In this document: piece after piece, positions 7,176-27,796 of the stretch
How the letters are laid out: every line of letters starts with the position of its first letter
Position numbering within the stretch: position 1 is the first letter of the stretch
NCBI GenBank assembly: GCA_009786685.1
Contig: WQRQ01000010.1
Location: 1 to 45,119 of the forward strand
Direction of reading: 5' to 3'
Origin: Defluviitaleaceae bacterium
GTDB lineage: Bacteria; Bacillota; Clostridia; Lachnospirales; WQUN01
Length of the DNA stretch: 45,119 nt
Program-made: the position numbers and the translations under genes
The notes under the pieces: generated by a model
Databases searched by the model: none
The model's input: only the letters and a program-made list of their open reading frames with translations
Told to the model about the DNA's origin: nothing

Positions 7176-7246
7176 GATGGGGGCTACGCCCCCAAGCCCC
7201 CTCGCTACACAGGGCAAAGCCCTTCTCCACTCCGCTGCCGCGTTCG
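7176..7246 (-). repeat. Dispersed palindromic repeat, copy A
   Basis: Reverse complement CGAACGCGGCAGCGGAGTGGAGAAGGGCTTTGCCCTGTGTAGCGAGGGGGCTTGGGGGCGTAGCCCCCATC aligns to 31087..31153. Confidence 0.7.
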
Positions 7247-7321
7247 GATGTACTATATCAAAACGCAATGGGGTTTTGCAAGTGTTTATGCGGGCTGGAA
7301 AGCTTTTGACCAAAAAAACAT

Positions 7322-8230
7322 TTAAAATCCGGTGGGGTTTTCGATATAGCGCAGCAGGGGGTAGGGGTTTATCCAAAAATTGCCTCGTGTAAACGTAACG
7401 TCGGGGGAGATGGCAAGGTGCAAATGCACGGGAAAGCTGCGCCCGTCACGTCCGCCGCCGCTGTTTCCCATTTGGCCGAGGAGTTGCCCTGCGGTGATAT
7501 TCTGCCCTGCGGCTATTCCCGTGGCAATGCGGTCCAAGTGTGCGTATAGATACAGCGTGTTGTTTTCCGTCACGACACTCACAAAATACCCGAGGTTATT
7601 ATCCCAGCCCGCCTCGCGTACCGTTCCGCGTGTCATGCTGGATACAGGTACGCGTCCGCGGATATTTTCGCGGTCTATGATTGCCGTACCCATGTGCATT
7701 CGATTCCCTTGGAAATTATGCTCAACCCCCCACGAGTCCCCAAACATTATCGAAGGGTCGTACTCATACCAGCCCGCAGGTATCGGAAACGCCTCGATTT
7801 CCGTAAAAAGGCTTTCAAACATGGCTATATAAGGTGCGATACTGCGCGAGTTATACTGTCTGGAAAGCCGCTTAAAATCCGATACATACAGCCGCTCGAT
7901 TGCACTAAGGTCGTAAACGGCACGCTTCTCCGGGAAGAAATCATTTTGGGCATTAAACACGGCAAAAAGCTCCGGGAAGGAAATCCCGTTGCGTGCCGCA
8001 TATACCCGCAGCATTCCGATAGCCCTGTGAGGCACACGGAACGCCGCCACAGTATCCGCGTCCACCCGTACCCTGATACCCGGCCGCAAAAGGCTAAAAA
8101 TGCCGCCGATAATTAACAAAAAAACCGCAAGCACGCATAGCTTAAAAAAATAATCCTTTACAAGCCCCGGTCTAAAGCCGTTGAGCTTCCTTTTAATTCC
8201 AACCCTGCGTTTTATGTCGCGGCTTCGCAT
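7322..8230 (-). CDS. M23/LytM-family metallopeptidase, membrane anchored
   Basis: MGTAI...VSSMTRGTVREAGWDNNLGYFVSVVTENNTLYLYAHLDR...GQLLGQMGNSGG...VHLHLAI. Confidence 0.85.
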   Translation of the reverse strand: MRSRDIKRRVGIKRKLNGFRPGLVKDYFFKLCVLAVFLLIIGGIFSLLRPGIRVRVDADTVAAFRVPHRAIGMLRVYAARNGISFPELFAVFNAQNDFFPEKRAVYDLSAIERLYVSDFKRLSRQYNSRSIAPYIAMFESLFTEIEAFPIPAGWYEYDPSIMFGDSWGVEHNFQGNRMHMGTAIIDRENIRGRVPVSSMTRGTVREAGWDNNLGYFVSVVTENNTLYLYAHLDRIATGIAAGQNITAGQLLGQMGNSGGGRDGRSFPVHLHLAISPDVTFTRGNFWINPYPLLRYIENPTGF

Positions 8231-8355
8231 AAAAAAACACCCCTTCGTTTGAGGATATTCACAAATCGGAGGTTTAATGCTTGCAAATAAACAATTTAAC
8301 CACTACAATCAAACAGAATTCAACATTACTATAATAGAGCAGAGGAGAATTGTGC

Positions 8356-10623
8356 ATGAAAAACATGAAAATCAGAAGTAGGCTGTTTTTGGGATTTATC
8401 TTGGTTTTGGTAATCACTGCCATCATTGCAATATACGGCGGAAACCGCATATTACATGTGGACGACGAGTACACGTATGCATTGAGTTTTCCCATGGAGC
8501 GATGGGATATACTCAATCAGATGTCACGTGAACTGGTGGATTCCAGACGGGTGCTTAACCGCGCCGTCATGTATATCTTTGACCCGGATATAATGCACGA
8601 GCGTCTCGGAAACAGAGAAGCCGCCATGCAACGCAGCCGTGCAAACATAGACGCCCTTATCGTTCGGTATCGAGATAATATAAACGACGACCCCCGCTTG
8701 GAGCAGGCACGAAAAACAGAACTGCTCGGCATAATATCCTCCTATGAGGCGGCCGTTCATCATTATTTTAATCATTATGTGCCGGTGGTGTTTGCTGCCA
8801 TCAGGGATTTGGACGGCCCTACTGCAAGAGCCGGTGCAGATGCACTTTCGGGGCAAATTGCTACAGCTACAGGGTATTACAGCACCTTGATGGACGCTGC
8901 CTCGGAGTATATGGCTACAATCAGTGACGACCTTACTATAGTGACAATGTCAACACTGTATATGCTCATCGGGTTTGCGGTTGTTGGTGTTCTGCTTGGT
9001 GTGTTAATTGCTTATTTTATTTCCGGCTCGATTACAAAACCGATAAACAGGGTTTTAACAGCCTTAAAATACGTATCAAGGGGCAATCTTAACATTAACA
9101 TCGACAGGTCTGACATATCCAAAGACGAAACAGGGGTACTAACCCAAGATATTTGCAGTCTGGTGGACATAATCCGCGCCATGGTGGACGATTTGATAAA
9201 ACTCGACCACGAGTACAATACAGTCGGTGATATCGACTACAGGATTGACGTCTCCAAATACGAAAATTCTTTCAGAGAAATGGTAGAAGGCGTAAACAAC
9301 ATCCCGGACAATATAGTGCGCGATATAATGGAACTCCTAAACGCGCTGGGAGAATTAAACAAAGGTAACTTTAACGCCGACTGCAAAGACTTGCCCGGCA
9401 AAAAAATGGTTTTACCAAACTCTGTACGTGCCACCATCGCAAATATCAAGGGTGTAAGCACCGAGGTAAACGCAATGATAAATGCCGCCGCAGTAAAAGG
9501 CGAACTCAGCTTTAAAATTGACGCAAACAAATACGAAGGCGGCTGGCGCGAAATAATGACAGGGCTTAACAGCATTGCCCAAGCAGTTGACGCACCGCTT
9601 TCGGAGATTAAAAATGTAATGGACAAGCTTTCGCACGGTGATTTTTCTACCACGGTAACGGGCAACTACGCAGGCGATTTCAAACAAATCAAGGAATCCG
9701 TAAACTCCACGATTTCTACGCTTTCTGTTATCATAGAAGAAATTTCCAGGGACTTGCAGGCGATTTCTTCCGGAGACTTAACCACCTCCATCACACGCGA
9801 CTTTGTAGGCAGCTTTGGCGCAATTAAGGAATCGCTTAACAATATTTCATCGTCGCTGCACAAGACCATGTCGGAGATTTCTTCTGCCTCGGCTCAGGTG
9901 CTTTCCGGTGCAAAGCAGATTTCTTCCAGCTCCATGGACTTGGCAAACGGAGCGCAAACCCAGGCAAGCTCTGTTGAAGAGCTTAATGCGTCCATCGACG
10001 TCATCACACAGCAAACCAAACAAAACGCAGACGATTCTTCCACGGCAAACCAGCTTTCCGGCCGCTCTACCGCAAACGCAAAAGAGGGCAACGAATCCAT
10101 GAAGCACATGCTCACCGCCATGGAGCAAATAAAAGACGCATCCAACAATATTTCAAAAATAATAAGAGCGATACAAGACATCGCCTTCCAAACAAATCTG
10201 CTCGCGCTTAATGCCGCAGTAGAAGCCGCCCGCGCAGGAGAACACGGCAAGGGCTTTGCCGTAGTAGCAGAAGAAGTACGCAGCCTAGCCGCCCGCAGCC
10301 AATCCGCCGCCACCGAAACCACAGGCCTAATCCAAGAATCCATCACCCGTGTGGAATCCGGCTCGGAAATCGCGGTATCCACCTCAAACTCACTGGACAC
10401 AATAGTAAACGGCGCAGGCGAAATATCCGACATCATCAGCAGAATCTCCGAGGCCTCCAAAGAACAGGCCGAAGCAATATCACAGGTAAGCTTAGGCATA
10501 GCCCAGATATCGCAGGTAGTACAAAGCAACTCCGCAGTATCGGAAGAAACCGCCGCCGCCGCAGAAGAATTAAATTCGCAGGCAGAGTTGCTTCAGCAGT
10601 TGGTATCGTATTTCAAACTCTAG
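8356..10623 (+). CDS. Methyl-accepting chemotaxis protein with extended HAMP-like region
   Basis: Two TM helices and a periplasmic four-helix-like domain; conserved signalling tip [41 protein letters not shown] at 8356 after AGAGGAG. Confidence 0.93.
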
Positions 10624-10643
10624 CACTATCATAATTAACGATT

Positions 10644-10677
10644 AAGCGTGTCGTATAACCTGCGACACGCTTTTTTT
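10644..10677 (+). terminator. Rho-independent terminator of the MCP gene
   Basis: AAGCGTGTCG...CGACACGCTTTTTTT. Confidence 0.85.
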
Positions 10678-10715
10678 GCTTGACGTGTCTCGTTACTGCC
10701 TATAGAATGAACTTG

Positions 10716-10736
10716 GACATTTTCCAAGAAAATGTC
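10716..10736. promoter_or_regulatory. Operator-like inverted repeat upstream of the isomerase-like gene
   Basis: GACATTTTC-CAA-GAAAATGTC, a perfect 9-bp dyad 26 nt before the ATG. Confidence 0.5.
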
Positions 10737-12851: not shown

Positions 12852-14019
12852 CTTCGAAAACATAGTGGAAGTATTGGGCAGGCATGATAATCATGTAACT
12901 ATCGTGGTTGTCTATTTGTCTTTTTCGGCAGTAGTAATTTTACTTAGAATTTTTGCGCATTTACATTTCCGTGGGGTGCTGCTTTCGTTTTGGCATACGG
13001 CGGATAAGGCGATTAACGATAAAAAAGAGGTAAAGGAAATCAAGCATTCTGTTTTGAAAAAGGCCTGTGCGGAGTATGTACGTGTGGCAGAGCGGGCGGT
13101 TACGGCTGTGCCTACTTCGCAAATCGTGGAACGTGCCGTGGCGGGCATGGGCTTTTTTGGCTGGAAATACACGGGCTTGTTGCCATTTATCGAGGGCATG
13201 GAAATTGGTCTTTTGGGCATTGGTTTTGTTTTGGCTGTAGTCTTTGGCGATAATGCTGCGGTTTATGGCTTGCTTGCGGTTATTGTTTTTGTTGCTTGTC
13301 GTTTGTCGGCGGCTTTTTTTAATGTGCGGGCGGCGCGGGAGCGGCTTTGTGACGAGATGGTGTTGTTTATCGAGCGCGAGGTGGGGCGGTTTTTTGCCGC
13401 CGATACGGGTGGGGCGTTGCTTCGTTTGAAAAATGATTTGACTGACGCAATCGGACGGCAGGGAGAATTATTTAAAACAACGATGAAATCCATATCCGAA
13501 AGCATGGTAAATGCGGCAAATTCCATCGGGCCGATTGTAGCAAAGGCCATGGACGAAAAATTAATTAACTTGAATGACACCTTAACAAAAACTTTGTTGG
13601 ACTGGGAAAACGCGTTGATAAAGGCCTCAGAAATCCAAACTGCGATAAACACGGGAGCGGAGCGGTTTTCGCAGGCAAGCACAAAAATACAATCCGCGTC
13701 GGATTTGTTATCTACGCATATGCAAGGCCATAGCAACGCTTTGTCCGAGCAGCTTGTGGCACTCGTATCAGCGATAAATGAATTAAAAGAAACCCAAAAA
13801 GCCCTAACAATAACCGCGGGCTTTGTAGAAAAAAATCAGCACGCACTGGAAACATCCTTGACCTCATACGAAGCCTCCCTGCAAAGTCTTACGCAATCCA
13901 TAGGAGACGGTCTGGGTGCGTTTATAAATCTACACGCCCAAACAAGCGCGCAAACCATAAACGACGCTATGAAGGCCAATATTGACAAGATGATGAATGC
14001 TGCACAGGGAGGCATGTAG
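12844..14019 (+). CDS. Membrane protein with long C-terminal helical/coiled-coil tail (MotA/TolQ/ZorA-like topology only)
   Basis: Three to four hydrophobic segments in the first ~170 aa, then ~200 aa of heptad-like Ala/Ser/Leu-rich helix. Confidence 0.5.
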   Translation: MHSFENIVEVLGRHDNHVTIVVVYLSFSAVVILLRIFAHLHFRGVLLSFWHTADKAINDKKEVKEIKHSVLKKACAEYVRVAERAVTAVPTSQIVERAVAGMGFFGWKYTGLLPFIEGMEIGLLGIGFVLAVVFGDNAAVYGLLAVIVFVACRLSAAFFNVRAARERLCDEMVLFIEREVGRFFAADTGGALLRLKNDLTDAIGRQGELFKTTMKSISESMVNAANSIGPIVAKAMDEKLINLNDTLTKTLLDWENALIKASEIQTAINTGAERFSQASTKIQSASDLLSTHMQGHSNALSEQLVALVSAINELKETQKALTITAGFVEKNQHALETSLTSYEASLQSLTQSIGDGLGAFINLHAQTSAQTINDAMKANIDKMMNAAQGGM

Positions 14020-14021
14020 TT

Positions 14022-15065
14022 GTGTTAATAAATAACAGTAATTATTTTACTGCATTGGAAAACATAAAAAGGCGAATAAGAATAACACAATACAGAGCAG
14101 CCTTGGGTGCAAACAAGGAGCTAATTGAGTTGTATTGGCAAATCGGAAAAGTTATTATAGAAAACACAAAATACGGAGCAAAGTTTGTCGAAAATCTTTC
14201 AAAGGATATATTATCGGAGTTCCCGGAAATACAGGGATTTTCTCCCAGAAATTTAAAATATATGCGTAAATTTGCGGGGACATATCCCGACTTTACAAAA
14301 GTGCAACACGTCGTTGCACTTTTGCCTTGGCGTAATAATTTGACGTTAATTTCCAAAATAAAAGATGAATCCGAGCGGCTATGGTACATTGAGCAAAACA
14401 TAGAAAACGGCTGGAACAACAACACATTAACGCATAATATAGAAACAAAATTATTTCAACGTCAAGTAGAGGCTAAGAAAACAGCAAATTATCAACGAGT
14501 ATTGGAGATGCCTTTTAGCGAGCTGGCAGAAGAAACATTAAAAAGCCCTTATGTATTTGATTTTGTGCAAAAAAGAAAAGGAATAATCGAGCGCGAGATA
14601 GAAAAAGAGTTAGTTGCAAATATTGCAAAAACGATAATGGAGTTAGGCACAGGCTTTGCATTTGTCGGCAACCAGTATCACATAGAAGTAAGCGAAAAAG
14701 ATTATTACATCGACCTATTATTTTACAATACAAAACTACGTTGCTATGTAATAATTGAATTAAAAAACACAGAATTTAAACCGGAGTATGCAGGAAAGCT
14801 TAATTTTTATCTTTCCGCTATAGATGACACGCTAAAACATGAAACGGATAACCCTTCAATTGGAATAATGCTTTGCCAAACAAAAGATAAATTAACGGCA
14901 GAATATGCGTTAAAGGATATAAATAAGCCAATTGGCGTTAGTGAATATAAGCTATCCGACTTTGTTCCTTCGGAATTTATTGACACACTGCCGAGCGCAG
15001 AAGATATAGAAAAACGAGTAAAGCTTGAATACGATGTTGAAGGGGATGTATTTAATGAGCGATAA
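14022..15065 (+). CDS. yhcG: YhcG/DUF1016-family PD-(D/E)XK nuclease
   Basis: ELYWQIGKVI...GFSPRNLKYMRKFA...LLPWRNNLTLISK...WYIEQNIENGW...GTGFAFVGNQYHIEVSEKDYYIDLLFYNTKLRCYVIIELKN. Confidence 0.9.
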   Translation: MLINNSNYFTALENIKRRIRITQYRAALGANKELIELYWQIGKVIIENTKYGAKFVENLSKDILSEFPEIQGFSPRNLKYMRKFAGTYPDFTKVQHVVALLPWRNNLTLISKIKDESERLWYIEQNIENGWNNNTLTHNIETKLFQRQVEAKKTANYQRVLEMPFSELAEETLKSPYVFDFVQKRKGIIEREIEKELVANIAKTIMELGTGFAFVGNQYHIEVSEKDYYIDLLFYNTKLRCYVIIELKNTEFKPEYAGKLNFYLSAIDDTLKHETDNPSIGIMLCQTKDKLTAEYALKDINKPIGVSEYKLSDFVPSEFIDTLPSAEDIEKRVKLEYDVEGDVFNER

Positions 15066-16303: not shown

Positions 16304-19033
16304 GTGATTAACATTTTAAACCATATAAATAAGCTGGAAAGCCGCCATAAACATGATGCGGACGGTACGATTGCGCTCGCGTTGAGGTGCTGGCAGGCCT
16401 ATCGCTTTCTTGAGCCGGAGCATGAAATGCGGATTCATCTGCAACGTGCAAACCACGCGGTGATTGCCGCGCATAGGCGAAACGTCGTGCATATCGAGCT
16501 GTACATGCTCACCATTTTCATCGCAATAGAATCCGGCCACTACGACAACGCCAACGAAATGCTGGATAAGGCGATTAATTACAAATCGTTTTTAAAATCC
16601 TCCGAGCCGTTTTATTACGGTGTTTTGTGTTTTCTTTATGCGTATCTGGAGCTTAACCAGCGGCGTATCCGCTCAGCAAAAAAGCATCGTCGCGCACTTG
16701 CCGATCATATCAAAAATGCCGCGCCCTCGCCGCATTATACGGTTATGCTGGGGCTGCTTCACCTTGCCGCAAACGAATTCCCGGAGGCGTATAAATATCT
16801 TACGGAGGCTTTGCTTGCGGGGGTAAACAGCATCTTTTTGTACGAAGGGCTTTATCGCTATTACAAAAACGCGTCGAGTGGCTTTGAAGGAATGAGCATT
16901 CTGCCCGTACTCACCTACGCCGCAGGGCGTGGTGCAGAAATCGGACTTGTAGCCGCAAAATACGCGGATACCCTATCCGCCGCGATAGCCGAAAACCCCG
17001 CCGCAGGCGAAAAGCTCTACGAAGTCAGCAAATACCCGCCGATTCTCAAGGACATATGCAAGCATCGCATAATAAAACGCGACATGAGCCGCGAGGCATA
17101 CGCCTACTACCGCGAGGCGGAAAAAAAGCAGATTTTTACGCAGGAGCTTTTTACCGCGCTTATCCGAGCCGCATATGAGAATAACGTACAAAAATTAAAC
17201 CATTACCCCATCAAAAAATTCCTGGCGAATTTGCCGCCCGACGGCATACAAGACGCGGAGTTTGCTGTGTATGTATATCACTTCCTGCTTTCCGACCCTG
17301 CGCTGTCGGACATTTTGCCCGAGGCGCAAACTAAAATCCTACAACTCGGCACGCGCTGTCTGGAAAATAACGTGCGCGGGCGCGAGGCAAACAGCATATA
17401 TTATTTTCTGTGGAGCAGATTTCGTGCGTTGGGTATCCAAGGGGCGCAGCTTTTGCAGGCGGAGGAGATTTTGCGCGAAAACCTCACGCTTTTTGAGCTG
17501 CGTACAGAAGAAAACTCCGCCGTCCGCTTTATATACATCACAGAGCCGGAAAAACGTGGTATGACAGTATATGAACTGACACGCACAAGCGTGGGGGCAG
17601 AGCCCCCATTGATAATCGAAGCCGTAAGCGCGCAAAACATAAACTACACATGCCTAGGCGCGGGCCAACGTACAATCATAGACGAAGAAATAACAATCCG
17701 CCCGATGATAGAAAATATCACCCATGAGTTAAATTTATATTTCTTCCAAAAAGGCGACCGCCGTTTTAATCTGTTGGCCAACCTCGCCAATTACTACCTT
17801 TCGCTGGAAATCCCCCCCGACGAGGCCGCCCCCGTACTGGAAGCCGTTCTGCAAGAAAAAACCATAAAAAAGCCGTACAAAATGCGTATTCTCATAGCCC
17901 TTGGCCGCTTGCATTACAACGCCTTCAGCTTTGAGCAAGCCCTCGAATGCTACGGCGAGGTGGAAGAGGACGAAATAAGCAACGAGTTTATAGAGCAGGT
18001 TCTCACCGTCTACCTGCAAACCCGCGAGTATGCCCGCGCCGCAAAATTAATTTCAACAAAGCACAAAAGCATCTCAAACGAAGTCCTGTTCGACGCACTA
18101 AACACCCTAATCACAAAAAAAGAAAAAGCAATTTCTGCCACCCCGGAAATCAGCTACAACCTGCTAATGAATAACTTCTACAGCGAAAAGCTGCTCGCGT
18201 ATGTATTAAAAAACCATATCGCAAGCTACAGTGAGTGGGCGGAGCTTTCCCGCTTGCTCGACGAAGAAAACCACAGCGCGACCAGCCTGGACGCCCGTGT
18301 ACTGGAGACCGCACTCTATATGTCATCCTTCGACCAAATGGCCCAAAAAGCTTTTACGCGCCTATACAATGCCGACCCAACAAACAATCTAATCACCGAG
18401 TTTACAGAGCTTGCCACCTTCGAAATGTTGGCAAACCACACCCGCCCAAGCTACGATGTCATCGGCATTTTAGAAAAAATTTATCTGGAATCCGAAAAAC
18501 CTCCTGTTCTGTTGGCATGGGGGCTTTCCACGGTGTACCTTAGCCACAATATCACCACCTTTAAATCCGAAGAAATAACAAATCACGCCGTCTCCGCATT
18601 GGAAAGCGAAGGCATCCTTTTCCCTATTTTCAAAGAGAGTAAATCTTCGCCGTTTATCAAAAAATTCCAACCCTTTTTGTATAAAAGCTTGCCGAACAAG
18701 GATTGTTGGTTGTATTATCGTATTGACGGTGCGACGGCCTTTACCGCCGTACCAATGCAGTACGTTCGCTACGGTTTATACGTGGCTGCCTTACCCATGT
18801 TTTACAACGAGACCTTCACCTACTATTTTAGCGAAGAAATGGCGTCCGGCAGCATAACCACCCGAGAAGAAAGCGTAAAAAACAACAAGCCCTTTTTGCA
18901 TGAGGACACCGACGAGTATTTTACGATAAACAACGCCATCATCTACGAGCAAATGTTTAAGCACGACCAAGTCGAAAAGCTAATCTCCCGTCTTGTAAAA
19001 GACGTCCGCCCTGTGAGGAGCCAACTACTATGA
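16304..19033 (+). CDS. Large TPR-like helical repeat protein, resembles the C-terminal part of DUF5717-type proteins
   Basis: ~910-aa ORF with many TPR-like helices. GTG 16304 has AAAGGGG at suitable spacing. Confidence 0.55.
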   Translation: MINILNHINKLESRHKHDADGTIALALRCWQAYRFLEPEHEMRIHLQRANHAVIAAHRRNVVHIELYMLTIFIAIESGHYDNANEMLDKAINYKSFLKSSEPFYYGVLCFLYAYLELNQRRIRSAKKHRRALADHIKNAAPSPHYTVMLGLLHLAANEFPEAYKYLTEALLAGVNSIFLYEGLYRYYKNASSGFEGMSILPVLTYAAGRGAEIGLVAAKYADTLSAAIAENPAAGEKLYEVSKYPPILKDICKHRIIKRDMSREAYAYYREAEKKQIFTQELFTALIRAAYENNVQKLNHYPIKKFLANLPPDGIQDAEFAVYVYHFLLSDPALSDILPEAQTKILQLGTRCLENNVRGREANSIYYFLWSRFRALGIQGAQLLQAEEILRENLTLFELRTEENSAVRFIYITEPEKRGMTVYELTRTSVGAEPPLIIEAVSAQNINYTCLGAGQRTIIDEEITIRPMIENITHELNLYFFQKGDRRFNLLANLANYYLSLEIPPDEAAPVLEAVLQEKTIKKPYKMRILIALGRLHYNAFSFEQALECYGEVEEDEISNEFIEQVLTVYLQTREYARAAKLISTKHKSISNEVLFDALNTLITKKEKAISATPEISYNLLMNNFYSEKLLAYVLKNHIASYSEWAELSRLLDEENHSATSLDARVLETALYMSSFDQMAQKAFTRLYNADPTNNLITEFTELATFEMLANHTRPSYDVIGILEKIYLESEKPPVLLAWGLSTVYLSHNITTFKSEEITNHAVSALESEGILFPIFKESKSSPFIKKFQPFLYKSLPNKDCWLYYRIDGATAFTAVPMQYVRYGLYVAALPMFYNETFTYYFSEEMASGSITTREESVKNNKPFLHEDTDEYFTINNAIIYEQMFKHDQVEKLISRLVKDVRPVRSQLL

Positions 19034-20367
19034 TGACTGAGCATGAATTTGAACCCACCGTTACACACGCTACATTAAAACAAATAATAGACAATGTGCC
19101 AATGCCATGCATACTGCGCGACGCAGAATGCACTATGTTGCACCACAACAAGGCAGCGGCAAATATGTTTGCCTGCGAAGCAGACGAAACCGATTTTACG
19201 GGAGAATACGAAGAGCTTTCGCCGCCCTTCCAGCCCGACGGAAGCCCTTCCATGCGCAAATACCTTGTGCTTATGCGCCACATTCTGGAGCAAGGCCAGC
19301 CCATAAAATTAGAATGGCTATACTGCCGAAGGGACAAAGAGCTAATCCCAACGGAAGTAACTTTAATGCGCGTAGAAGTAGGCGGCGAACCGCACGTCCT
19401 TGAGTTTCTGCAAGACCTGCGCGAGTCCTACCAGGCTCGCCTTGCCGAGCGCGAAGTAAAACAACGCCTACAGGTAATGATGGATTCTTGCCCCGTAACC
19501 TGCGGCATAGTAGACGCCCACTTTAACGTACTCGAAGTAAACAACGTAGTAATGAGCCTATTTGGCATCCTAAACAAGCAGACCTTCTTGGACCGTTTCT
19601 TCGAACTCTCTCCGGAATACCAGCCCGACGGCCAGCTATCCCGCCGCAAAGCCCTCGACAAGCTAAAGCAAGCCTTTGAGGCAGGCCGCGTACACTACGA
19701 GTGGCTTCACCAGTCCATCTACGGCGAACAAATCCCCTGCGAAGTCACCCTCGTCCGCGTACAGCTAAGCGAACAAAACATGGCAATCATCTACATTCAC
19801 GACCTCCGAGAAATAAAAAAATCCATCGAAATGATGGAAAAAATGGAATCCATAGCCTATACCGACGAGCTGACAGGCTTGTTTAGCCGCCGCTATTTCG
19901 TAGAAAACGCCACCGCCGCTCTGGAACGCGCCAAAGCCAACAAAGAACCCTTCCACCTGATAATGGCAGACCTCGACCACTTCAAGGCCGTAAACGACAC
20001 CTACGGCCACCCCATAGGCGACGAAGTCCTAAAAATCACCGCAAAACGCATGACAGGCGTAACCCGCCAAGGCAGCATAATAGCCCGCTACGGCGGCGAA
20101 GAATTTATCGTAATGCTAACAGGCATGTCCCACGACGCCGCCCTAAAAACCGCCCAACGAATCCAAAAATCCATGGAAGAATCCGCAATCACCATAAAAG
20201 GCATGTCCCTAAACGTAACAGTATCTCTAGGAATAGCCTCCCACTCCGACCCCACAGAATCCCTAGACGACATAGTCCACAAAGCCGACGTAGCCCTATA
20301 CGGCGCAAAACGCACCGGCCGCAACAAGGTAATGGAGTATGAGAATGCGAAAGACCTTAAATGGTGA
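19030..20367 (+). CDS. PAS-PAS-GGDEF diguanylate cyclase
   Basis: Two PAS-like segments (both ...FELSPEYQPDG/YEELSPPFQPDG...) and YTDELTGLFSRRYF...ADLDHFKAVNDTYGH...ARYGGEEF. Confidence 0.93.
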   Translation: MMTEHEFEPTVTHATLKQIIDNVPMPCILRDAECTMLHHNKAAANMFACEADETDFTGEYEELSPPFQPDGSPSMRKYLVLMRHILEQGQPIKLEWLYCRRDKELIPTEVTLMRVEVGGEPHVLEFLQDLRESYQARLAEREVKQRLQVMMDSCPVTCGIVDAHFNVLEVNNVVMSLFGILNKQTFLDRFFELSPEYQPDGQLSRRKALDKLKQAFEAGRVHYEWLHQSIYGEQIPCEVTLVRVQLSEQNMAIIYIHDLREIKKSIEMMEKMESIAYTDELTGLFSRRYFVENATAALERAKANKEPFHLIMADLDHFKAVNDTYGHPIGDEVLKITAKRMTGVTRQGSIIARYGGEEFIVMLTGMSHDAALKTAQRIQKSMEESAITIKGMSLNVTVSLGIASHSDPTESLDDIVHKADVALYGAKRTGRNKVMEYENAKDLKW

Positions 20368-20412
20368 AAAACCGCCGTTGAGCTGAAATTTCGGAAGCAA
20401 CGGCGGTTTTGC
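20367..20412 (+). terminator. Rho-independent terminator
   Basis: AAAACCGCCGTT...AACGGCGGTTTT at the GGDEF stop codon. Confidence 0.8.
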
Positions 20413-20444
20413 CCGAGCGCAGAAAGCGAAGCGCACGCGCTCAG

Positions 20445-20948
20445 GCGGGCTTAGTGGCTCGTGTGCCATATGTAATATCGTGCGCGTCCGTCACGGGGAT
20501 TTCCCCCCACTGCTAGAACCTTCGGCCAAACGCTGTGGGGGGAAATCCCCGCGCCGAACTACATATATTAACGACGACCACCAAGGACGGCAAAACCACC
20601 GTCGCTTCCTTACAGCGTACGTAGATGTTTTTGGATTAACCGCTCCAGCCCGCATAAATACTGGGTTTCGGACGATAAAACATACGGGTCGGCAAGCCGC
20701 CGTTTGCCAACATCGCACTAGCCAAAGGAAGCTGTATCGGTTTAGCCCTCCCTCGTGGTCGCCCGATAATCCATGTAGTTCATCGCGGGGAATTCCCTCC
20801 GCAGCGGTTGGCCGAAGGTTATAGCAAGGTCGAGCGAAGTGCGCTCGACATAGCGGAGGGATTTCCCCGCGATGGACGCGCACGATGCTATAGCGGGCGT
20901 ACGAGCCAAAAAGCCCGCCAAGGCTAAACCGATACAGCTTCCGATATT
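20445..20948. repeat. ~500-bp non-coding element with two inverted, structure-conserved arms (MITE-like or structured-RNA-like)
   Basis: Left arm ATCGTGCGCGTCCGTCACGGGGATTTCCCCCCACTGCTAGAACCTTCGGCCAAACGCTGTGGGGGGAAATCCCCG...GAACTACAT...CGACCAC recurs inverted on the right. A perfect 21-bp repeat GGAAGCTGTATCGGTTTAGCC occurs at 20727-20747 and inverted at 20922-20942. Confidence 0.75.
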
Positions 20949-20972
20949 TAGCTCCGATGTTTACCCCGCTGT

Positions 20973-22145: not shown

Positions 22146-22202
22146 AATTTTTGCTCCCTTTGTTGGATTTTTTTGCGCGCATATTATACACTATATAAGA
22201 GA

Positions 22203-22240
22203 AAAAAACCAACTGACGATTTTTCATCAGTTGGTTTTTT
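22203..22240 (-). terminator. Rho-independent terminator overlapping the stop codon of the small ORF
   Basis: AAAAAACCAACTGA...TCAGTTGGTTTTTT. Confidence 0.8.
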
Positions 22241-22412
22241 GTTTTTCCCACCGTATCAGCTCTTGCATCCATTGTTCAAGATTGTCTTTACACGGCATAC
22301 AAACGCGTTTTCCCTTGAATTCACATTGTTTATCGTGAGGGTATTTAGGTATTATTGCACCGCATTCTTTGCAACAATCAATTATTTGTTCATTTGCAAA
22401 TTCTGTATACAA
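22227..22412 (-). CDS. 61-aa Cys-rich (CxxC...CxxC) zinc-ribbon-like protein
   Basis: TTG start with AGGGGG 6 nt upstream: MYTEFANEQIIDCCKECGAIIPKYPHDKQCEFKGKRVCMPCKDNLEQWMQELIRWEKQKTN. Confidence 0.55.
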   Translation of the reverse strand: MYTEFANEQIIDCCKECGAIIPKYPHDKQCEFKGKRVCMPCKDNLEQWMQELIRWEKQKTN

Positions 22413-22488
22413 GATAATCCCCCTAATCAAAGCAACACCTGCGGTGGAAGTGTTTGAAACTTCGCACCGCGGGGTGCGCCTGCAATAC

Positions 22489-22538
22489 AAAAAGGTGTGC
22501 AGGGACGGCGGAAAACCGCCATCGTCCCAACACACCTT
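22489..22538 (-). terminator. Long hairpin plus T-run on the minus strand
   Basis: Minus strand AAGGTGTGTTGGGACGATGGCGGTTTTCCGCCGTCCCTGCACACCTTTTT. Confidence 0.7.
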
Positions 22539-22632
22539 GGATAATCCAAGCAAATTAAACAAACTTACCGCCAAGCCACAACAAGGCATACACAAACAAA
22601 GCCTATTCCGCACAATGTTGAAATAGAATTGA

Positions 22633-22756
22633 AACAGTGCTACACTGTTATTACGTAGTGGCAGGCGCAAGCCTGTGTGTGTTAGGTGATGTCGAGAAAT
22701 CCCTACACTCGCCGTGGGGTGTTTGGCGACGCCTCACGGTTGCTACGGTTTTTTTG
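22633..22756 (+). ncRNA. Candidate structured RNA or palindromic element
   Basis: Hairpin AACAGTG-CTA-CACTGTT; closing pair CGTAG...CTACG enclosing CAGGC-GCAA-GCCTG and CCGTGGGG...CCTCACGG; ends in GTTTTTTTG. Confidence 0.3.
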
Positions 22757-22787
22757 TTGCCAAGAGCATTCTAACACACATATACAG

Positions 22788-23186
22788 TTAGACGCAAATT
22801 TTCTTTTTCAATAAAATAACAGGCGAGGGGTAATTTGCCAATACACTGTCGAAGGTTAATAATGTTATTTCTTCTGCCATGGCTTGCGCTAGGAGGATTC
22901 TGTCAAATGGGTCTTTGTGGATATTTGGCAACATGTCAATCATTAATGTGTGCCTTGCGGTAATATCAATCTGCGAATATCCATTTAACAAAAGACCGTT
23001 ATACAGCAGATGTGGGTCTATATTAAAATCAGGGCGATTTTGCCCTTTTTTTATTACGATTTCCCATATGCTTGCAGGGCTAAAAAGCAAGTGGTTTGTT
23101 TCGTCGGTAATATAGGGCGCGGACGCAGGCGGCAATTTATCCAACGCAGCCCATATCAGTATTTATGTATCGAGTAACAGCTTCAT
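22788..23186 (-). pseudogene. VapC-like PIN toxin with an in-frame nonsense codon at codon 8
   Basis: From ATG 23186: MKLLLDT*ILIWAALDKLPPASAPYITDETNHLLFSPASIWEIVIKKG...DPFDRILLAQAMAEEITLLTFD. The TAA at 23165-23163 sits where VapC has a conserved H after LLDT. Confidence 0.75.
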
Positions 23187-23434
23187 GCTGTACCCTCGAA
23201 CAGTGATATAATTTCTTCTTCTCCCATACGGTCAAAATCATCGGGTACTTCGTATTTTCCTTTTAAAAAACCTACCCTGCTTTGTTGTTTTTGCGGCAAT
23301 ACATAGGGGATAACCTTTACCATCGGCTTTCCTGCTTTTGCTATTATAAAGGGCTCGCCTTTTGCCGCATATTCTACCAGCATAGATAAGCGGGTTTTGG
23401 CTTCGTGCATATTAACCTGCAACATAAACATCAC
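23183..23434 (-). CDS. Phd/YefM-type antitoxin
   Basis: MLQVNMHEAKTRLSMLVEYAAKGEPFIIAKAGKPMVKVIPY; TGA overlaps the VapC ATG. Confidence 0.85.
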   Translation of the reverse strand: MMFMLQVNMHEAKTRLSMLVEYAAKGEPFIIAKAGKPMVKVIPYVLPQKQQSRVGFLKGKYEVPDDFDRMGEEEIISLFEGTA

Positions 23435-23555
23435 CTTTCCGACTTAGCCTGCAAACTTAGTTTATCAACCGGGATTTGTTGCGTCAAGCCGTCGGATATT
23501 GTACAATGACAAAGTATTGGAAAATGTTTTACATAACAAGAAAGGGATGGTCAGT

Positions 23556-26900: not shown

Positions 26901-27391
26901 AACTGACAGAACACGACATCCGCCCACTATCGGCAAAACATCTCCCCATATACGCAGAGGTAATCCGCAAAAGCTTCGCCACAGTAGCAAAAGATTACGG
27001 CTTAACAATTGAAAATTTTCCCAATCATTGGAGCTTTGCTACAAACGAACGGTTAGCGGAAAAAATCAAAGACGGCTACCATCCCTTTGGATATTTTGCC
27101 GGCGAAAAACTGGTAGGTTTTGTTTCTCTGACGGACAAGGGTGAAGGTATCTACGAGATGGGTAAGATTTCGGTTTTGCCGGAGTATCGGCATTTAGGAT
27201 ACGGGAAAGCATTGCTCGATTTCTGCAAAGAAAAAATTAAGGAATTAAGCGGGAGCAAAATAGTTATCAGCCTGGTGGATACACACACTATCCTTAAAGA
27301 GTGGTATCTCGCCAACGGCTTTATATACACAGAAACAAAAAAATTCGAGCATATACCACTTCCCATAGGCTACATGGAGTGGACACTCTAA
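26891..27391 (+). CDS. GNAT-family N-acetyltransferase
   Basis: MGKISVLPEYRHLGYGKALLDFCKEKIKE acetyl-CoA-binding motif. Confidence 0.85.
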   Translation: MGVKLTEHDIRPLSAKHLPIYAEVIRKSFATVAKDYGLTIENFPNHWSFATNERLAEKIKDGYHPFGYFAGEKLVGFVSLTDKGEGIYEMGKISVLPEYRHLGYGKALLDFCKEKIKELSGSKIVISLVDTHTILKEWYLANGFIYTETKKFEHIPLPIGYMEWTL

Positions 27392-27406
27392 CCGAAAGGA
27401 GCTTCT

Positions 27407-27715
27407 ATGGCGACAATAACAGAAATAAAGGATATCGTTTCGGAAACAGCTAAAAAATACGGCGTGGCAAAAGCCTATTTATTCGGCTCATATGCAAACG
27501 GCACTGCTGACGAAAACAGCGACATAGACCTCCGCATAGACAAAGGAAATCTGCGCGGCTTATTCCAGCTATCGGGCTTTAGGCTGGATTTGCAAGAACG
27601 CCTCGGCACACCCGTAGACGTAGTAACGACCCAAAGCCTTGACGCGGCTTTTCTTAACGCAATCCGCAATGAGGAGGTTGTTTTGTATGAACAAAAGCCT
27701 GCCGGCGTCAAATAA
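27407..27715 (+). CDS. Minimal nucleotidyltransferase (MNT-type)
   Basis: AYLFGSYANGTADENSDIDLRI: GSx10DxD motif. Confidence 0.85.
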   Translation: MATITEIKDIVSETAKKYGVAKAYLFGSYANGTADENSDIDLRIDKGNLRGLFQLSGFRLDLQERLGTPVDVVTTQSLDAAFLNAIRNEEVVLYEQKPAGVK

Positions 27716-27796
27716 AAGGAATGCGCAAAATGCAATCGGACATCCCCGCACTACGAAAATACTGCCAAAATATAAAATAAAAGACGGTGAAAAAAA

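What the first reader, a model, noticed from the sequence alone, without database searches (positions are those of the whole stretch)
20445..20948. ~500-bp non-coding inverted-repeat element with covarying internal hairpins
The left arm (~20448-20580) and right arm (~20748-20920, inverted) align along their length: GGCTCGT..., ATCGTGCGCGTCC, hairpin, AACCTTCGGCCAA, hairpin 3' side, GAACTACAT, CGACCAC. The central stems differ yet stay paired: GGGGATTTCCCCCCAC/GTGGGGGGAAATCCCC versus GCGGGGAATTCCCTCCGC/GCGGAGGGATTTCCCCGC (one mismatch). The right arm carries an extra hairpin GTCGAGCG-AAGTG-CGCTCGAC. A perfect 21-bp inverted repeat (GGAAGCTGTATCGGTTTAGCC) brackets the right half. This looks like a MITE-type or structured-RNA element with no identifiable protein.
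Basis: seen in the sequence. Interest (0 to 1): 0.65.

Follow-up and report, generated by a model that had tools for sequence, protein, structure and literature searches.

The report
Mobile repeat with two folded ends
A gut bacterium carries about thirty copies of a small gene-less mobile DNA unit whose two ends are long folded structures that keep their shape while their letters change, and a sister species shows the same places empty.

Summary
The ~500 bp at 20445-20948 is two head-to-head copies of a ~190-217-bp folded module (20393-20609 on -, 20727-20942 on +), each with its own ~21-bp outer stem, separated by a second short repeat. At least 30 places in the genome carry the module. Both main stems stay 93-98% paired although their sequences differ between copies (double changes at 18/21 outer-stem and 23/25 inner-stem positions), while the unpaired ATGTAG and CGCGCA feet stay constant. 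Modules come as outward-pointing pairs of two types around a middle repeat of fixed polarity. In the nearest relative, eight gene pairs that hold this composite are 1-129 bp apart, against 445-1353 bp here: the composite inserted. Homologues occur in 2 other genomes of 295 sampled from the order. No Rfam match; no mover found. Best reading: a new family of non-autonomous mobile element (MITE/BOX/REP-like) whose ends are probably recognised as folded single strands. Insertion is strongly supported; folded-strand recognition is inferred. One copy clearly carries the mark of replication template switching, which may produce part of the covariation without selection. An RNA role is not excluded.

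The parts
20393..20609 (-). End module A (type II end), 217 bp; the strand that keeps the fold features is the minus strand
   Evidence: TIR, fold and covariance-model match
20393..20413 (.). Outer stem P1 of module A, first arm (pairs with 20589-20609, two G-U pairs)
20589..20609 (.). Outer stem P1 of module A, second arm
20415..20442 (.). Extra hairpin GAGCGCAGAAAGCGAAGCGCACGCGCTC inserted next to P1 of module A
   Evidence: sequence; absent at this place in most copies
20486..20510 (-). Inner stem P3 of module A, 3' arm
20511..20534 (-). Cap of P3 in module A (AGCGTTTGGCCGAAGGTTCTAGCA)
20535..20559 (-). Inner stem P3 of module A, 5' arm
20559..20564 (-). Conserved ATGTAG foot of P3 in module A
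   Evidence: invariant or nearly so across 3 genomes
20621..20663 (-). Middle repeat (CAGTATTTATGCGGGCTGGAGCGGTTAATCCAAAAACATCTAC), pointing towards module A
   Evidence: dispersed family, fixed polarity relative to the ends
20727..20942 (+). End module B, 216 bp, in the type I position; the strand that keeps the fold features is the plus strand
   Evidence: TIR, fold and covariance-model match
20727..20747 (.). Outer stem P1 of module B, 5' arm (perfect 21-bp repeat)
20773..20778 (+). Conserved ATGTAG foot of P3 in module B
20778..20802 (+). Inner stem P3 of module B, 5' arm
20803..20826 (+). Cap of P3 in module B (AGCGGTTGGCCGAAGGTTATAGCA)
20827..20852 (+). 26-nt hairpin AGGTCGAGCGAAGTGCGCTCGACATA inserted in the cap; present in 8 copies, its core also alone elsewhere
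20853..20877 (+). Inner stem P3 of module B, 3' arm
20878..20887 (+). Conserved unpaired GCGCACGATG downstream of P3
20922..20942 (.). Outer stem P1 of module B, 3' arm
20368..20972 (.). Whole intergenic stretch between the two convergent genes, 605 bp; 8 bp in relative G023
   Evidence: synteny and empty site
19030..20367 (+). Left flanking gene, PAS-GGDEF (diguanylate cyclase-like)
   Evidence: Pfam PF00990
20973..22145 (-). Right flanking gene, F420-0 gamma-glutamyl ligase family
   Evidence: Pfam PF01996

Best explanation
This is one copy of a multi-copy, non-autonomous mobile element. The unit is [end I, inverted] - one or more middle repeats - [end II]. Each end is a ~190-nt module that folds into an outer stem (P1) and a long inner hairpin (P3) with a conserved ATGTAG foot on one side and CGCGCA on the other. 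SHOWN: copy number, end pairing with fixed polarity, covarying stems with constant unpaired feet, extra DNA between genes that are nearly adjacent in the sister genome. INFERRED: an enzyme supplied in trans, not identified, recognises the ends as folded single strands by shape plus the unpaired feet, which is why stem letters are free to change. Replication template switching between stem arms also helps to keep arms complementary (seen clearly in one copy, probable in another). Copies then decay by hairpin deletion and by nested hairpin insertions.
For: At least 30 places in the genome. Eight syntenic gene pairs in relative G023 have 1-129 bp where this genome has 445-1353 bp holding the composite; G023 and seven other members of the genus have no copy. 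Patchy spread: G025 of the same genus and G027 of another genus have copies, 292 other sampled genomes of the order do not. P1: 98% paired within copies against 71% with arms swapped between copies, 18 of 21 positions with double changes. P3: 23 of 25 pairs with double changes, 0 of 500 shuffles. Wobble cells favour G-U over A-C on one strand: 18 against 1 in P3, 18 against 6 in P1. The middle repeat points away from type I and towards type II ends in 25 of 25 cases. GTAG foot plus hairpin is what TnpA-REP proteins bind, strand-specifically, in known REP systems (PMC8266576).
Against: No recombinase could be linked. The only Y1 transposase match in the genome (C141) is not next to a copy, and G025 (94% complete, 8 or more copies) has none. 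No clear target-site duplication and no constant terminal sequence. The strand asymmetry rests on related copies, so its counts are not independent; template switching has been proposed to yield asymmetric pair frequencies too (PMC8794818). The sister-genome difference could be loss in G023, though absence from most of the genus makes gain likelier.
Confidence: 0.55

Rival explanations
1. A family of structured RNAs (cis-acting leaders, terminators or trans-acting RNA). The modules are transcribed and the fold works at RNA level; dispersal is secondary.
For: Covarying stems, constant unpaired feet and caps, and G-U preferred over A-C on one strand. Some copies lie 10-70 bp upstream of a start codon in the same direction. 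An apical motif (GAGAGUAUAGC..GCGAUGAG) is shared between two genera.
Against: Copies point at gene 3' ends as well as gene 5' ends, so no single cis role fits. They come as head-to-head pairs of two types inside one insertion. No Rfam match. No promoter beyond the shuffle level next to the window copy. Absent from most of the genus.
Confidence: 0.2
2. Decaying palindromic junk: the stems stay complementary only because replication template switching repeatedly copies one arm onto the other; no present function or recognition.
For: Copy C13a has its 3' arm, including the normally unpaired region, replaced by the complement of its 5' arm (33 of 34 nt; 16 of 34 with the usual sequence). C34 looks like the reverse event, less cleanly (34 of 49). 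Template switching is documented to create and maintain hairpins (PMC8794818).
Against: Template switching also erases unpaired asymmetry, yet the ATGTAG and CGCGCA feet are kept in nearly all copies and in two genera with wholly different stem sequences. Fixed polarity and insertion between genes need a mobilisation event.
Confidence: 0.15
3. Giant REP elements mobilised by a RAYT (Y1 tyrosine transposase).
For: GTAG foot plus hairpin, head-to-head heterotypic dimers and intergenic siting resemble GTAG-REPs (PMC3733652); the genome holds one Y1 transposase gene.
Against: No copy flanks that gene; G025 has 8 or more copies but no Y1 match, and G027 (82% complete) none either. Modules are about 5 times longer than REPs and have an outer stem.
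Confidence: 0.1

Closest known systems
BOX elements of streptococci (boxA-boxB-boxC; boxE/boxF in S. suis)
   Same: Small intergenic, gene-less units with two different end modules around middle modules of variable number; tightly folded; many copies; MITE-like (PMC3049150)
   Different: Here each end folds on its own as a ~190-nt module, ends are inverted to each other, stem sequences covary between copies; no clear target-site duplication; likeness is of layout only
GTAG-REPs / BIMEs / REPINs with RAYT transposases
   Same: TGTAG directly 5' of a hairpin, head-to-head heterotypic pairs, intergenic, strand-specific features (PMC3733652, PMC8266576)
   Different: About 200 bp against 20-40 bp, additional outer stem and 3' foot, no RAYT gene found in one carrier genome
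bcr repeats of the Bacillus cereus group
   Same: 100-400-bp dispersed repeats with mobile features (PMC6542083)
   Different: bcr mobility is linked to a TTTAT motif; nothing comparable was noticed here; the two-ended composite is not described in that paper
Integron attC sites
   Same: Structure rather than sequence conserved in a recombination site (established knowledge)
   Different: No AAC/GTT-type core sites seen at the feet; units are inverted pairs, not a same-direction array

Membership tests
MITE (non-autonomous transposable element) | Short, no coding capacity, many copies | tested here: met
   At least 30 places; no Pfam hit in the chance ORF across the copy
MITE (non-autonomous transposable element) | Terminal inverted repeats | tested here: inconclusive
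   Ends are inverted modules and each has a stem, but the terminal sequence is not constant
MITE (non-autonomous transposable element) | Target-site duplication | tested here: not met
   No clear duplication at eight empty-site comparisons; ends may be eroded
MITE (non-autonomous transposable element) | Empty sites in relatives | tested here: met
MITE (non-autonomous transposable element) | Related autonomous element with transposase | tested here: inconclusive
   Only Y1 transposases were searched for; none linked
GTAG-REP | GTAG at one foot of a hairpin | tested here: met
GTAG-REP | 20-40 bp simple palindrome | tested here: not met
   P3 hairpin 74-100 nt inside a ~190-217-bp module
GTAG-REP | Cognate RAYT gene flanked by the repeats | tested here: not met
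BOX element | boxA/boxB/boxC sequence modules | not tested
   Comparison is by layout only
Structured RNA | Match to a known family (Rfam 15 gathering score) | tested here: not met
Structured RNA | Transcription of the module | not testable with these tools
   No RNA data available
Structured RNA | Covariation supporting the fold | tested here: met
   P1 and P3 only; a possible P2 stem shows none; template switching is an alternative source

The most novel reading that the evidence does not exclude
A new kind of mobile element in which the recombination signal at each end is a ~190-nt branched fold read as single-stranded nucleic acid (DNA or RNA), with almost no sequence requirement in its stems and with two distinguishable ends of fixed polarity, moved by an enzyme outside the known REP/RAYT system.
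Probability: 0.25. Interest if true: 0.75.

Novelty: new variant of a known kind. Interest (0 to 1): 0.5.

Why it matters
It is a dispersed bacterial repeat in which shape is kept while sequence turns over, with a sister genome that shows empty sites and at least one copy that shows template switching. That makes two open questions testable on one system: how gene-less bacterial repeats move, and how much stem covariation comes from mutation rather than selection. It also warns that covariation in multi-copy palindromes is not by itself proof of a functional RNA.

Tried and rejected
Rfam at permissive and gathering thresholds: only microRNA-hairpin noise and a tRNA. Plasmid, phage and viral contig searches: nothing. 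Pattern scan of GTDB r220 genomes with the main cap: nothing. A P2 stem (GUGguCGCCC/GGGCGCAC): 79% paired but no covariation, not claimed. RAYT as the mover: no gene found in a carrier genome, no copy at the gene. Shared insertion sites between G000 and G025: only one pair of loci with homologous genes (G025 C57 / G000 C85), not examined further. Cap-motif hits outside the order (Fimbriimonadales, Holophagae, Pseudoalteromonas, Nitrospirae, Providencia) lack the hairpin context and are probably chance. Weak model hits in G017 and G030 (24-26 bits) were left out as doubtful.

Full report
WHAT IS THERE. The window lies on contig C10 of a 2.93-Mb, 195-contig draft genome. The structure is two copies of one module in opposite orientation: A at 20393-20609 (minus strand) and B at 20727-20942 (plus strand), each bounded by its own ~21-bp inverted repeat. 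Between them lies a 43-bp repeat of another dispersed family (20621-20663).

COPIES. A BLASTN search of the own genome gave 104 aligned pieces, and the covariance model R1 gave at least 30 distinct places on the module strand, a few of them duplicates in a tandem repeat on contig C121. Modules have an outer stem P1 of ~21 bp, a long inner hairpin P3 of ~25 bp with a conserved cap, and constant unpaired feet, ATGTAG before and CGCGCA(C)GA after P3. The predicted fold of both window copies has these stems and is 9-12 standard deviations better than shuffled sequence.

COVARIATION. In 18 copies of this genome P3 is 98% paired, with 11 pairs changed on both sides. In 20 copies from three genomes it is 93% paired and 23 of 25 pairs have double changes; 0 of 500 shuffles reach this, and slid partners fall to 40-58% paired. 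P1 arms differ strongly between copies (mean identity 61%, minimum 19%) yet pair at 98% within a copy against 71% when arms are swapped between copies; 18 of 21 positions show double changes. The caps are modular: a few copies of this genome have quite different caps, one of them shared with G027. On the module strand G-U exceeds A-C (P3 18 to 1, P1 18 to 6), which suggests that this strand matters as a single strand, with the caveat that copies are related. A further stem P2 was tested and is not supported by covariation.

COMPOSITE. Modules fall into two types by P1 sequence (GCCGTGCG-like, I; GGAAGC-like, II). Where two sit together they are head-to-head, with their 3' ends outward next to genes, and in eight of nine cases one is type I and one type II. 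The middle repeat points away from type I and towards type II in 25 of 25 cases. The mobile unit is therefore [I inverted]-middle-[II]. In the window A is the type II end; B is in the type I place but has a type-II-like P1. Some apparently single modules have a degenerate partner: contigs C98 and C90 show remnants at the other end.

INSERTION. Genome G023 is the nearest relative (F420 ligase 90% identical) and syntenic over much of the window part compared. Its GGDEF and F420-ligase genes are separated by 8 bp, against 605 bp here (flanking genes identified by Pfam). Eight gene pairs with a composite here have 1-129 bp between aligned flanks there, against 445-1353 bp here. The absence of copies from G023 and seven other genus members makes insertion in this lineage more likely than repeated loss. 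Some of the extra stretches hold genes: a Phd-YafQ-like toxin-antitoxin pair on C121 and a MazE-like gene on C6. No clear target-site duplication appears; many modules are followed after a few bases by a run of C.

DISTRIBUTION. Model R2 finds the module in this genome, G025 (same genus, 9 matches) and G027 (another genus, 2 copies) among 295 genomes drawn from the order, and in no other of 391 drawn from the class (the stricter filters used there lose weak matches). No plasmid, phage or viral contig match.

TEMPLATE SWITCHING. In copy C13a the 3' side of P3, including its normally unpaired part, is the complement of the 5' side (33 of 34 nt; 16 of 34 with the usual sequence); C34 looks like the reverse event but less cleanly (34 of 49). 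Such events can maintain pairing without selection (PMC8794818). They do not explain the constancy of the unpaired feet across genera.

MECHANISM. Insertion of a two-ended composite is strongly supported. That the ends are read as folded single strands is inferred from covarying stems, constant feet, strand asymmetry and the likeness to GTAG-REPs, whose TnpA-REP binds the GTAG motif and hairpin strand-specifically (PMC8266576, PMC3733652). A RAYT is not supported as the mover because no Y1 gene was found in G025 and the only such gene here has no module beside it. I put the full statement at 0.55, insertion alone at about 0.9.

LIMITS. Draft MAGs; G023 was compared over the 1.44 Mb fetched; E-values of the home-made models are rough; gene positions near copies come from a simple ORF scan; no expression data.

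Noticed in passing
window 22174-23496: Another stretch nearly missing in relative G023 (about 50 bp there); it contains a PIN-domain / Phd-YefM toxin-antitoxin-like pair (22788-23144, 23183-23434).
   Followed up: partly
window 8246-10730, 13997-15053, 26901-27795: Further large stretches present here but almost absent between the same neighbours in G023; not examined.
   Followed up: no
window 7235-7340: A lone, weak match to the middle repeat outside the composite.
   Followed up: no
L052 924-968 (own genome C141): A middle repeat lies beside the genome's only Y1 transposase gene; several lone middle repeats are preceded by GGGGACAG, which fits the TIRtron motif GGGGWSAS of Di Nocera 2013, so the middle repeat may belong to that transposase's family.
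   Followed up: partly
   Followed up: partly
L016 (own genome C121): A 2893-bp unit with a DnaC-like ATPase and a 354-aa gene is repeated in tandem, with module pairs at each junction; could be real or an assembly artefact.
   Followed up: no
L123 around 4880 (Pseudobutyrivibrio sp. ACV-2): Long hairpin with the same apical motif GAGAGTATAGC-GAAA-GCGATGAG and a nearby GTAG, not matched by model R2; the apical motif may be a wider structural motif.
   Followed up: partly
L068 1-270 and L113 1-400 (G025): G025 also carries head-to-head module pairs, with P1 stems unrelated in sequence to each other.
   Followed up: partly
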